Part shown: positions 16,604 through 41,804 of the stretch, in pieces
Layout: each line of letters starts with the position of its first letter
Numbering within the stretch: position 1 is the stretch's first letter
From: Candidatus Latescibacterota bacterium
GTDB lineage: Bacteria; Krumholzibacteriota; Krumholzibacteriia; Krumholzibacteriales; Krumholzibacteriaceae
Direction: 5' to 3'
DNA: 46,885 nucleotides
Assembly (NCBI GenBank): GCA_019038625.1
Contig: JAHOYU010000057.1
Location: 1-46,885, forward strand
Program-made: the position numbers and the translations under genes
Notes under the pieces: generated by a model
What the model was told of the DNA's origin: nothing
Database searches by the model: none
Seen by the model: the letters and a program-made list of their open reading frames with translations, nothing else

Positions 16604-16628
16604 CAAACGGTTCCGAATGTGTTATATT
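16600..16628 (+). promoter_or_regulatory. Array promoter P1 (sigma-70, extended -10)
   Basis: TTGACA, exactly 17 bases, then TATATT preceded by TGT (extended -10). This is the first of six near-identical promoters. It overlaps the stop of the preceding gene. The predicted RNA start is at about 16634-16636, coinciding with the ATG of the HNH gene. Confidence 0.85.
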
Positions 16629-16633
16629 ATAGT

Positions 16634-17119
16634 ATGACAGAGCAATGTGTTGTAATTAAGTGGGGACGAAAGATACGCGTAGAGCGGCGTGTTTGTGAAC
16701 GGACAAAATGCAGCAAAGAATTTTGGGCTCCGGTTTACAATCTGAAGAAAGGTCAGGGACGTTATTGCTGCAGATCTTGCGCTAACTCAGTAAAGATGAC
16801 TCTTCTTAATCAGAGCAGGACGGGAGCGAAGAATCCGAACTGGCGGGGCGGCGTATCAGGCAAGGCAATAATATACAAGAGGCGAAGTGTTGCCAAGTAC
16901 CCGGAGCGCGAAGAAGCACGAAAACAAGTAGCAAAAGCACTGTACAGAAAAGAACTAATTCAACAGGACTGCGTGTTCTGTGGTGAAACGAATACCGAAG
17001 CACATCATTGGGACTATAAACAACCACTAAAAGTCACTTGGTTGTGCCGAAAACACCACGTATATGCTGATAAAGTTAGAAGAGTACGTGAGTTATTTAG
17101 TCATTTGTGGAAAACTTGA
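16634..17119 (+). CDS. HNH homing endonuclease with NUMOD3-like motif
   Basis: This 161-residue protein has an N-terminal zinc finger (CERTKC...CCRSC), a NUMOD3-like segment (GAKNPNWRGG) and a C-terminal HNH nuclease core (CVFCG, EAHHWDYKQPL, WLCRKHH), a metal-dependent DNA cutter of the phage homing type. The ATG at 16634 sits where transcription from P1 should start and no ribosome site precedes it, so the message may be leaderless. The stop TGA (17117-17119) abuts the first base of tRNA-Asn. The gene therefore looks inserted between promoter P1 and the tRNA it once drove. Confidence 0.85.
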   Translation: MTEQCVVIKWGRKIRVERRVCERTKCSKEFWAPVYNLKKGQGRYCCRSCANSVKMTLLNQSRTGAKNPNWRGGVSGKAIIYKRRSVAKYPEREEARKQVAKALYRKELIQQDCVFCGETNTEAHHWDYKQPLKVTWLCRKHHVYADKVRRVRELFSHLWKT

Positions 17120-17192
17120 TCCGAGGTAGCTCAGCGGTCAGAGCAGGTGCCTGTTAAGTACTTGGTCGAGGGTTCGAATCCCTCTCTCGGAG
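17120..17192 (+). tRNA. tRNA-Asn (anticodon GTT)
   Basis: Cloverleaf: acceptor TCCGAGG/TCTCGGA, anticodon loop CTGTTAA, T arm GAGGG TTCGAAT CCCTC, discriminator G. CCA is not encoded. It starts on the base after the HNH stop codon. Confidence 0.95.
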
Positions 17193-17727: not shown

Positions 17728-18147
17728 ATGAATATAGAAAAGTTGCACTCTAAAGCAAAAGGCAATGTCGGCGAAGCGGCTGTAACTAAGTGGCTACTCG
17801 AACGTGGTTATGCCGTGTTTACAGAGTTGGGGGATTTATCTAGAATTGATCTAATTGCCGAGCGAGAAGGAAGGCTTTATAAAATTCAGGTCAAAGCAGC
17901 TAGAACTAGAGACGGCATTGTAAACTTAGAGAGAAGGAAACGAGGCCCTAGTTATCGTTTTGTTTATAATGCAGAAGATGTAGATTGGTTTGGAGTGTAT
18001 GTCTACGATTTAGACGTAGTTTTGTGGGTAAAATCTGAAGAACTATGTAGTCATAAGGCCAGCATGCATATAAGGTTTGTACCACCGAGAAACGGAGTAA
18101 AGACTGGTTTTCATATGCATACGGATTACATACGAGACAGTTTGTAA
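17728..18147 (+). CDS. PD-(D/E)XK nuclease, probable homing endonuclease
   Basis: This 139-residue protein has the core of a PD-(D/E)XK nuclease: an N-terminal helix with GNVGEAAVTKWLLERGY, then IDLIAER and KIQVKAA, giving the E, D and Q-V-K active-site residues. Size and motif spacing match the I-Ssp6803I-like group, best known from a tRNA-fMet intron, and tRNA-fMet follows here 3 bases after the stop. No intron is visible. The ATG stands two bases after the discriminator of tRNA-Lys with no ribosome site, so the message may become leaderless once the tRNA is cut off. A Holliday-junction-resolvase-like function is the alternative. Confidence 0.75.
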   Translation: MNIEKLHSKAKGNVGEAAVTKWLLERGYAVFTELGDLSRIDLIAEREGRLYKIQVKAARTRDGIVNLERRKRGPSYRFVYNAEDVDWFGVYVYDLDVVLWVKSEELCSHKASMHIRFVPPRNGVKTGFHMHTDYIRDSL

Positions 18148-18150
18148 CGT

Positions 18151-37406: not shown

Positions 37407-37479
37407 GCCTCCGTGGTGAACGCGGTTATCACACAACTCTGATACAGTTGAGTAGAAGGTTCGAGTCCTTCCGGACGCA
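37407..37479 (+). tRNA. tRNA-Ile (anticodon GAT)
   Basis: Acceptor GCCTCCG/CGGACGC with one C3-C70 mismatch, D stem GTGA/TCAC, anticodon stem CAACT/AGTTG with loop CTGATAC, T loop TTCGAGT. Its 5' half resembles that of the split tRNA at 38751. Confidence 0.9.
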
Positions 37480-37781: not shown

Positions 37782-38134
37782 GGGGGCGAACTTTGGAATC
37801 GACAGGTGAACATCAGAAACAATGATTGCTATGCCGAAGGCTGCATCGTTAAAGCGCAAAAACCATAAGTGCAAACACGAAAGAAACTGTTGAGGCTACA
37901 TGCCTTGGCACACGCGCGGTTCGCCCTACGTTCCGTTTCGTGTCGATTAAGGGAGCTTCCCGCAGCTTTGTAACGGGTTCGGAGTCGCTTTGCAGATCGG
38001 CTACAAGAAAAACCACTGCAGCGTTGGCCTAACACGTAGATAGGCACGGCTGTCAGTAGCCCAAACTGACTATGCATAGTAGACGTCGTCGTGGAACAGT
38101 CGCTTGGACGCGGGTTCGAATCCCGCCGCCTCCA
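37782..38134 (+). ncRNA. ssrA: tmRNA (ribosome rescue RNA)
   Basis: This 353-base RNA has the one-piece tmRNA plan. The 5' end is GGGGGCG AACTTTGGAATCGACAGG, the 3' end is a T arm GCGGG TTCGAAT CCCGC followed by CGCCTCC and A, and the acceptor pairs fully. The resume codon aligns with E. coli: GCA at 37871 is base 90 of the RNA, preceded by AAAAACCATAAGT. The tag frame begins ANTKETVEATCL, like the ANTK start of the Streptomyces tag, but does not stop until TAA 38030-38032 (53 codons, ending TAALA) and lacks the usual ALAA end. The 3' part after the frame still shows tmRNA-like sequence. A phage tmRNA would free stalled ribosomes. Confidence 0.93.
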
Positions 38135-38157
38135 TTGTACTACTCTTAGGAGGGAAT

Positions 38158-38591: not shown

Positions 38592-38618
38592 TAAGTAAAC
38601 CACAAACAAGGAGTATGT

Positions 38619-38750
38619 ATGCTAGAGACTGCATTAAAAGTGTTAATGGTTCTAGTAGCTATTGGTATACCGGTTGGTTCTTTTGTTGTATTCAGACGCA
38701 GATCAGCAGCCCGAAAAGCAGCTGAGCTCGAAGGTACATGGAATAGCTAA
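38619..38750 (+). CDS. Small single-pass membrane protein
   Basis: This 43-residue protein uses the second of two close ATGs (38619), five bases from an AAGGAG site. One hydrophobic helix (LKVLMVLVAIGIPVGSFVVF) is followed by a basic helix (RRRSAARKAAELE). The N-out, C-in topology and size recall the similar protein at 17425. Its stop abuts the split tRNA-Ile. Confidence 0.68.
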   Translation: MLETALKVLMVLVAIGIPVGSFVVFRRRSAARKAAELEGTWNS

Positions 38751-38781
38751 CCGTCTGTGGTGAACGTGGTTATACACGCCG
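38751..38781 (+). pseudogene. Split tRNA-Ile(UAU), 5' half
   Basis: Acceptor CCGTCTG, D arm GTGAACGTGGTTATACAC, then the first three bases (CCG) of the anticodon stem before the sequence diverges. The matching 3' half is at 39390-39432. The two fit as one tRNA with a perfect 7-base-pair acceptor and a 5-base-pair anticodon stem (CCG+GT / ACCGG). The break contains an HNH gene and an intact tRNA-Ile(TAT). Confidence 0.85.
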
Positions 38782-38794
38782 AGAGGATTTAGAA

Positions 38795-39340
38795 ATGTCT
38801 AACATACGACGTTATGTCTATAAAAGACGAGCTATAGCCTACAAAGGCGGTAAGTGTGAGCTGTGTGGGTATGACAAATGCGAGAGGGCATTAACGTTTC
38901 ATCATCGCAACCCAGAAGAAAAGTCTTTCTCCATAAGCGGAGGCCATTGTCGTTCGTGGAAGAGCTTCTGCGCTGAAGTGGACAAGTGCGATTTACTATG
39001 TATGAACTGTCATATGGAGGTTCACGAACAGTTAGACAAAGAAGAACACCTGTACCAAGAAAGAGCAAGATTGCCTAACAAAGAGTGTTTGACTTGTGGC
39101 AAATTATTTCATGCTAGACGTGTCGATGCTAAATACTGTAGCACGCAGTGCTCGGGCAAAGCGGCACGAAAAGTAGAAAGACCTTCGAAGCACAATTTAG
39201 CGTTACTGATGACAGTAAATGGTTGGTCGCAACTGGGTAGAATGTTCGACGTCAGTGGGAACGCAGTCAAGAAGTGGGCCGTAAGTTACGGATTAGGAAC
39301 GCGCGCCGGTAGCTCAGTGGTGAGAGCAGGGTCCTTATAA
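38795..39340 (+). CDS. HNH homing endonuclease within split tRNA
   Basis: This 181-residue protein has an N-terminal HNH core (CELCGYDKCE, TFHHRNPEEKSF, CDLLCMNCHMEVHEQ), a zinc finger (CLTCGKLFHARRVDAKYC then CSGKAARK) and a C-terminal helix-turn-helix (WSQLGRMFDVSGNAVKKWAVSYGL) for site recognition. The ribosome site GAGAGG (38781-38786) begins at the junction with the tRNA half. Its last 38 bases run into tRNA-Ile(TAT), and the stop TAA lies in that tRNA's anticodon loop. Probably it cuts uninterrupted tRNA-Ile(UAU) genes, allowing copying of the insertion. Confidence 0.87.
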   Translation: MSNIRRYVYKRRAIAYKGGKCELCGYDKCERALTFHHRNPEEKSFSISGGHCRSWKSFCAEVDKCDLLCMNCHMEVHEQLDKEEHLYQERARLPNKECLTCGKLFHARRVDAKYCSTQCSGKAARKVERPSKHNLALLMTVNGWSQLGRMFDVSGNAVKKWAVSYGLGTRAGSSVVRAGSL

Positions 39341-39375
39341 GGCTCAGGTCGTAGGTTCAATTCCTACTCGGCGTA
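39303..39375 (+). tRNA. tRNA-Ile (anticodon TAT), inside the insertion
   Basis: Acceptor GCGCCGG/TCGGCGT, anticodon stem GGGTC/GGCTC with loop CTTATAA, T loop TTCAATT, discriminator A. It overlaps the HNH gene end by 38 bases. Same anticodon as the split tRNA but a different body, so it likely has a separate origin. Confidence 0.9.
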
Positions 39376-39389
39376 TTTTAGTAAGATAA

Positions 39390-39432
39390 GTCTTATAAAC
39401 CGGAATAGAGGGTTCGGGTCCCTCCAGACGGA
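39390..39432 (+). pseudogene. Split tRNA-Ile(UAU), 3' half
   Basis: GT completes the 5' anticodon stem, then loop CTTATAA (anticodon TAT), stem ACCGG, T arm GAGGG TTCGGGT CCCTC and acceptor CAGACGG with discriminator A. It pairs perfectly with the 5' half at 38751-38781. Because the halves lie 608 bases apart on one transcript, they could still in principle assemble in trans, but this is unproven. Confidence 0.85.
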
Positions 39433-39436
39433 CTAT

Positions 39437-39520
39437 GCCTCTGTGGTGGAAATGGTAGACACGACAGGTTTAGGCCCTGTTGCTCGCAAGGGTGTGGGGG
39501 TTCGACTCCCTCCAGGGGCA
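39437..39520 (+). tRNA. tRNA-Leu (anticodon TAG)
   Basis: Acceptor GCCTCTG/CAGGGGC, anticodon stem ACAGG/CCTGT with loop TTTAGGC, long variable arm (class II), T loop TTCGACT. Confidence 0.94.
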
Positions 39521-41735: not shown

Positions 41736-41804
41736 TGCCCCGTCCACGAGGGTGGCAGCCGTTTCTAACTCGGTGAATCATGGGTTCGACTCCCATCGGG
41801 GCAT
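41736..41804 (+). tRNA. Candidate amber suppressor tRNA (anticodon CTA)
   Basis: Acceptor TGCCCCG/CGGGGCA is perfect. D stem CCAC/GTGG has a short 4-base loop. The anticodon stem GCCGT/TCGGT closes with a U-U mismatch, and loop TTCTAAC gives anticodon CTA, which reads UAG. T arm ATGGG TTCGACT CCCAT, discriminator T. U1-A72, G2-C71, C3-G70 and U35 resemble this phage's tRNA-Gln genes, so charging with glutamine is likely though the discriminator is U not G. A shift of the loop by one base would give TCT (Arg), but that frame breaks the stem. Confidence 0.75.

What the first reader, a model, noticed from the sequence alone, without database searches (positions are those of the whole stretch)
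38751..39432. A tRNA-Ile(UAU) gene split by an element that carries its own tRNA-Ile(UAU)
Seen: a tRNA 5' half (38751-38781) and 3' half (39390-39432) fit perfectly (7-bp acceptor, restored 5-bp anticodon stem CCG+GT/ACCGG, anticodon TAT), separated by 608 bases holding an HNH endonuclease and an intact tRNA-Ile(TAT) of different body. Inference: a homing element that breaks an essential translation gene and brings a replacement, so the invaded phage does not suffer. The HNH stop lies inside the replacement tRNA. I know of homing elements in tRNA introns, but not this toxin-and-antidote-like design.
Basis: partly seen in the sequence, partly recalled or inferred. Interest (0 to 1): 0.88.

Follow-up and report, generated by a model that had tools for sequence, protein, structure and literature searches.

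The report
tRNA gene broken by endonuclease-plus-tRNA cassette
In a phage's tRNA gene array, a DNA-cutting gene has landed inside the phage's own isoleucine tRNA gene together with a complete spare tRNA that reads the same codon, which suggests a selfish element that breaks a gene but carries its own replacement.

Summary
Joined, the halves (38751-38781, 39390-39432) give a tRNA-Ile(UAU) that ARAGORN scores 112.8, close to the intact one inside (117.9). It is the only split tRNA found in the window; 100 shuffles gave one place, at 102.2. Both halves most resemble the phage's own tRNA-Ile(GAU), so the broken gene is native; the enclosed intact tRNA-Ile(UAU) is unlike either (59%).

The insert shows no group I intron. 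Its HNH protein belongs to a family tied to tRNA genes: 39 of 80 chromosomal relatives lie inside split tRNA genes, and 8 of 11 tested of these hold a recognised group I intron. Phage relatives are mostly free-standing in tRNA arrays, often abutting or overlapping a tRNA, with tRNA-Asn(GUU) strongly over-represented (27 of 79; background 52 of 697).

Best reading: an intron-less homing cassette, HNH plus a tRNA it presumably cannot cut, lodged in its target tRNA gene. 'Breaks and replaces' is plausible; 'toxin-and-antidote' goes too far. Neither cleavage nor need for this tRNA is shown, no uninterrupted relative was found, and no second same-anticodon case turned up among about 240 related genes. 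New variant of a known kind (tRNA-region homing endonucleases).

The parts
38751..38781 (+). 5' half of the broken native tRNA-Ile(UAU), positions 1-29
   Evidence: pairs 7/7 with the 3' half; joined ARAGORN 112.8; best window match is the phage's tRNA-Ile(GAU)
38782..39389 (+). 608-bp insert at tRNA position 29/30
   Evidence: no group I intron match at E<=5
38795..39340 (+). HNH endonuclease ORF, 181 aa: HNH core (about 9-84), zinc ribbon (about 93-132), helix-turn-helix (about 132-165); RBS-like GAGAGGA at 38781-38787
   Evidence: phrog_2255 E 1.9e-24; conserved residues present; AlphaFold mean pLDDT 91.8
39303..39375 (+). intact tRNA-Ile(UAU), presumed replacement; overlaps the last 38 nt of the HNH ORF
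   Evidence: ARAGORN, Rfam 65.4 bits, 59% identity to the broken tRNA
39390..39432 (+). 3' half of the broken native tRNA-Ile(UAU), including the whole anticodon loop
37407..37479 (+). native tRNA-Ile(GAU), sister of the broken tRNA
   Evidence: 73% identity to the joined halves, best of the window's other tRNAs

Best explanation
An intron-less homing cassette made of an HNH endonuclease and a complete tRNA-Ile(UAU) is lodged in the anticodon stem of the phage's native tRNA-Ile(UAU). Proposed mechanism: the HNH, a relative of nucleases carried by tRNA group I introns, recognises the anticodon arm of its target tRNA gene and cuts near positions 29/30; repair of the break installs the cassette. 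Instead of splicing itself out, the element brings a tRNA with the same anticodon but a different anticodon stem, which it presumably cannot cut, so AUA decoding survives while the native gene is left as two fossil halves. Shown: the broken native gene, no intron detected, the HNH family and its link to tRNA genes, the same-anticodon tRNA inside. Inferred: cutting of this tRNA, insertion as one unit, resistance of the carried tRNA, and a benefit to the phage.
For: Split tRNA real and unique in the window. Both halves most resemble the phage's own tRNA-Ile(GAU) (73% joined), while the inserted tRNA is 59% identical to either. No group I intron in the insert, and only 13-14 nt at each end lie outside HNH and tRNA. 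HNH conserved residues intact, confident fold. Of 80 chromosomal relatives, 39 lie on the sense strand inside split tRNA genes, those examined mainly tRNA-Asn(GUU) at 35/36; 8 of 11 tested hold a group I intron. Phage relatives have a same-strand tRNA at their 3' end in 79 of 244 cases, enriched for Asn(GUU) (p about 4e-10) and weakly for Ile(UAU) (p 0.02). HNH relatives inside split tRNAs with no recognised group I intron recur in L182, L234 and L239. The same array holds a relative of PDB 2OST beside tRNA-fMet. AUA is 29% of Ile codons.
Against: No relative with the unbroken tRNA found. No second case of an intact same-anticodon tRNA inside a split tRNA in about 355 loci. The break at 29/30 differs from the 35/36 site used by relatives. 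Insertion without loss or duplication at the break is not what resection-based homing normally leaves. Adjacency of this HNH family to tRNAs is common, so the carried tRNA could be a bystander.
Confidence: 0.5

Rival explanations
1. Bystander tRNA. The HNH, already joined to a downstream tRNA as is common in this family, inserted into a native tRNA-Ile(UAU). The matching anticodon is coincidence, or the native gene was free to break because another tRNA already covered AUA; there was no selected rescue.
For: HNH genes abut or overlap a tRNA in 79 of 244 cases, of many isotypes; 8 of 79 have an intact same-anticodon neighbour, so redundancy occurs.
Against: A chance match of anticodon is unlikely: Ile(UAU) is about 2% of tRNAs in these loci (12 of 697). 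ARAGORN finds no other UAU tRNA in the window.
Confidence: 0.25
2. Array reshuffling without the nuclease. Illegitimate recombination or template switching in a tRNA-rich region dropped a segment holding HNH and tRNA into another tRNA gene.
For: tRNA-in-tRNA without HNH exists: L224 has a 77-nt tRNA-shaped insert in tRNA-Arg(UCU); tRNA fragments are common around such loci.
Against: The family is repeatedly found inside tRNA anticodon arms, which points to targeting.
Confidence: 0.15
3. The insert is removed at RNA level: the halves are rejoined by an unrecognised intron, or by processing of the inner tRNA plus an RNA ligase.
For: The halves still pair perfectly in acceptor and anticodon stems; phages of L234 and L182, whose HNH inserts lack a recognised intron, encode T4-type RNA ligases.
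Against: No group I match at E<=5; only 13 nt precede the HNH ATG and 14 nt follow the inner tRNA; the left border is not the inner tRNA's 5' end, so RNase P could not free the 5' half; G58 in the T-loop suggests decay; no RNA ligase match in this assembly (a negative without positive control, and the phage contig is partial).
Confidence: 0.07
4. Assembly chimera.
For: The window is one contig of a multi-contig assembly.
Against: Exact break inside a tRNA, continuous HNH ORF, compact spacing on both sides.
Confidence: 0.03

Closest known systems
[quoted passage not shown]
   Same: a nuclease encoded inside a tRNA gene; relatives of the window HNH sit in tRNA group I introns
   Different: no intron detected here; a spare tRNA stands in for splicing; break at 29/30; HNH instead of PD-(D/E)XK
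T4 SegB, free-standing homing endonuclease of the phage tRNA region (PMC2988022 table 1; PMC13096335)
   Same: free-standing nuclease inside a phage tRNA array, linked to tRNA inheritance and copy number
   Different: SegB is GIY-YIG and lies between tRNA genes; here a tRNA gene is split
mobE in split nrdA of phage Aeh1 and mobA in gene 60 of T4 (PMC2988022)
   Same: free-standing HNH gene that splits a phage gene
   Different: there the two protein pieces assemble into a working enzyme; here RNA halves cannot obviously do so and a replacement gene is present
Synthetic Cleave-and-Rescue gene drives (PMC7951863)
   Same: nuclease linked to a version of the target presumed resistant
   Different: synthetic and lethal to non-carriers; no such harm shown here

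Membership tests
phrog_2255-type HNH endonucleases | sequence homology over the HNH domain | tested here: met
   E 1.9e-24; 27 and 80 related loci found
phrog_2255-type HNH endonucleases | conserved CxxC, HH, N and CxxCH-type residues | tested here: met
Homing endonuclease genes | lodged in or next to a conserved target gene | tested here: met
   inside a split tRNA; family enriched beside tRNA-Asn(GUU)
Homing endonuclease genes | specific cleavage of alleles lacking the element | not testable with these tools
   needs a biochemical assay
Homing endonuclease genes | uninterrupted target allele in a relative | tested here: inconclusive
   no close relative in the collections searched
tRNA group I introns with a nuclease ORF | catalytic intron core | tested here: not met
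   no Intron_gpI match at E<=5 in 38600-39450; 8 of 11 chromosomal relatives tested do match
tRNA group I introns with a nuclease ORF | insertion in the anticodon loop (35/36 in relatives) | tested here: not met
   break at 29/30 in the anticodon stem
Toxin-antitoxin / post-segregational killing | loss of the element harms the carrier | not testable with these tools
   no evidence either way
Cleave-and-rescue | carried copy resists the linked nuclease | not testable with these tools
   anticodon stems differ, resistance itself untested

The most novel reading that the evidence does not exclude
A natural 'cleave and rescue' homing element: a nuclease that destroys a tRNA gene and carries a cleavage-resistant tRNA of the same anticodon in place of a self-splicing intron.
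Probability: 0.35. Interest if true: 0.78.

Novelty: new variant of a known kind. Interest (0 to 1): 0.6.

Why it matters
Homing elements that enter genes are expected to avoid harm by splicing out or by sitting beside the gene. Replacement of the broken gene would be a third way, and a natural counterpart of engineered cleave-and-rescue drives. The fossil halves also point to a candidate cut site (29/30), which makes the idea testable with one purified protein and two short DNA substrates. The wider pattern, HNH genes that end inside the next tRNA, suggests that tRNA maturation and nuclease expression compete for one transcript.

Tried and rejected
Unbroken relative: not found via HNH, glycosyltransferase or capsid proteins, exact 3'-half pattern, anticodon-arm pattern, or the 74-nt joined tRNA (best phage hits are tRNA-Ile genes of Streptomyces phages, the one checked being UAU; 79% over 46 nt, E 0.6). 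Group I intron in the insert: none. Shared 7-mer CGCCGGT between the break site and the start of the carried tRNA: by a rough estimate about as likely as not by chance in 608 bases, dropped. Second nested same-anticodon case: L052, L135 and L150 have scattered tRNAs between weak halves and look like chance; L126 and L151 have tRNA pieces near an HNH and a tRNA-Ile(UAU) but no clean split. An 8-base anticodon-loop pattern in the assembly was uninformative. PDB by sequence gave nothing useful and by fold only weak matches to HNH-type nucleases. Promoter and terminator scans gave nothing on the + strand.

Full report
The observation. Joined, they form a 74-nt tRNA-Ile(UAU) with 7 of 7 acceptor pairs and 5 of 5 anticodon-stem pairs; ARAGORN scores it 112.8 against 117.9 for the intact tRNA inside. 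A scan for split tRNAs on both strands of the window finds this place and no other; 100 dinucleotide shuffles gave 12 candidate pairs in all, one place at or above 100, with a maximum of 102.2. The scan had to be loosened once to accept G at position 58, which this T-loop carries; the same rule was applied to the shuffles. The 5' half starts directly after the stop of a 43-aa ORF and the 3' half ends 3 nt before tRNA-Leu(UAG), so the pair occupies a normal slot of the array. The break is between tRNA positions 29 and 30.

The broken gene is native. Among the window's other tRNAs, the joined sequence is closest to the phage's own tRNA-Ile(GAU) at 37407 (73%), and each half ranks that tRNA first on its own (5' half score 18, next 14; 3' half 20, next 17). 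For the T-arm and acceptor alone, tRNA-Leu(CAA) scores slightly higher (17 against 15). The intact tRNA-Ile(UAU) in the insert is only 59% identical to either, so it looks foreign. G at position 58 of the broken tRNA hints at decay. AUA makes up 29% of Ile codons in 24 phage ORFs (14.7 per 1000), so an AUA reader is plausibly useful; its necessity is not shown.

The insert. Its 608 bases hold an HNH ORF and the intact tRNA, with 13 nt before the ATG and 14 nt after the tRNA. No group I intron was found even at E<=5. The HNH matches phrog_2255 (E 1.9e-24), and an AlphaFold model (mean pLDDT 91.8, pTM 0.59, so the relative placement of domains is uncertain) shows secondary structure consistent with an HNH core, a zinc ribbon and a helix-turn-helix. 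The last 38 nt of the ORF overlap the tRNA; the stop codon is TAA in its anticodon loop.

The family on chromosomes. In a scan of bacterial and archaeal genomes, 39 of the 80 relatives kept lie on the sense strand inside a split tRNA gene (my count); a few more lie inside on the opposite strand. The sites examined mostly fit tRNA-Asn(GUU) interrupted between 35 and 36 (CTGT|TAA; the borders are my reading). Rfam recognises a group I intron in 8 of 11 such loci tested.

The family in phages. There the relatives are mostly free-standing in tRNA arrays. Of 244 distinct HNH motifs, 79 have a same-strand tRNA starting within -60 to +80 of the stop; 35 overlap it, and 17 end exactly with T8-A9-G10 of that tRNA as stop codon. 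tRNA-Asn(GUU) follows in 27 of 79 against 52 of 697 background tRNAs (p about 4e-10); Ile(UAU) in 5 of 79 against 12 of 697 (p 0.02, window included). These tests treat loci as independent, which they are not fully.

Related inserts without a recognised intron. L182, L234 and L239 carry HNH genes inside split tRNAs, by my reading at 35/36, and Rfam finds no group I intron there at E<=0.5. None holds an intact tRNA. L224 has a 77-nt tRNA-shaped insert with exact mature ends in tRNA-Arg(UCU) at 35/36. So lodging in anticodon arms recurs, but an enclosed intact tRNA with the same anticodon as the broken one was seen only in the window.

Interpretation. The best reading is an intron-less homing cassette of HNH plus tRNA that lodged in its target tRNA gene and left the two halves behind. 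Shown: native broken gene, same-anticodon tRNA inside, no detectable intron, family link to tRNA genes. Inferred: cleavage of this tRNA, insertion as a unit, resistance of the carried tRNA, benefit. The bystander reading remains a serious rival, because this HNH family often sits against a tRNA anyway.

Known systems. I-Ssp6803I (tRNA-fMet intron, PMC1995217), SegB of T4 (PMC2988022, PMC13096335) and mobE/mobA insertions that split phage genes (PMC2988022) are the nearest in kind. What differs is replacement of the broken gene in place of splicing or reassembly. Cleave-and-Rescue drives (PMC7951863) are an engineered analogue. The paper library held here is open-access only, so an earlier description elsewhere cannot be excluded.

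Noticed in passing
window 17728-18147: PD-(D/E)XK_5 protein (PF11645 E 1.1e-22; PDB 2OST E 4.6e-7, which I recall as I-Ssp6803I) ends 2 nt before an initiator-like tRNA-Met at 18150, the tRNA type whose gene carries the I-Ssp6803I intron.
   Followed up: partly
window 16619-17119: Another HNH-like ORF, with no Pfam match at E<=0.01, ends directly before tRNA-Asn(GUU) at 17120.
   Followed up: no
L224 693-846: tRNA-Arg(UCU) split at 35/36 by a 77-nt tRNA-shaped insert with exact mature ends including CCA and no proper anticodon; RNase P and 3' processing could in principle free it.
   Followed up: partly
L182 2801-3341, L234 2327-3175, L239 2348-3168: HNH genes inside split tRNAs with no recognised group I intron; each insert ends in a T-arm-like hairpin; the phages of L182 and L234 encode T4-type RNA ligases.
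   Followed up: partly
L066 3220-3469: Group I intron (78.9 bits) with an HNH gene in a tRNA gene of a contig binned as Woesearchaeota; a 2014 review (PMC3984707) says group I introns were not yet known in archaea; binning not checked.
   Followed up: partly
35 of 79 HNH-tRNA loci, e.g. L006, L055, L141: HNH ORF ends inside the following tRNA, 17 of them using T8-A9-G10 as stop codon, so tRNA maturation would cut the HNH message.
   Followed up: partly
window 37782-38137 and 41736-41804: The phage encodes a tmRNA (Rfam 111.8 bits) and a tRNA with anticodon CUA.
   Followed up: no
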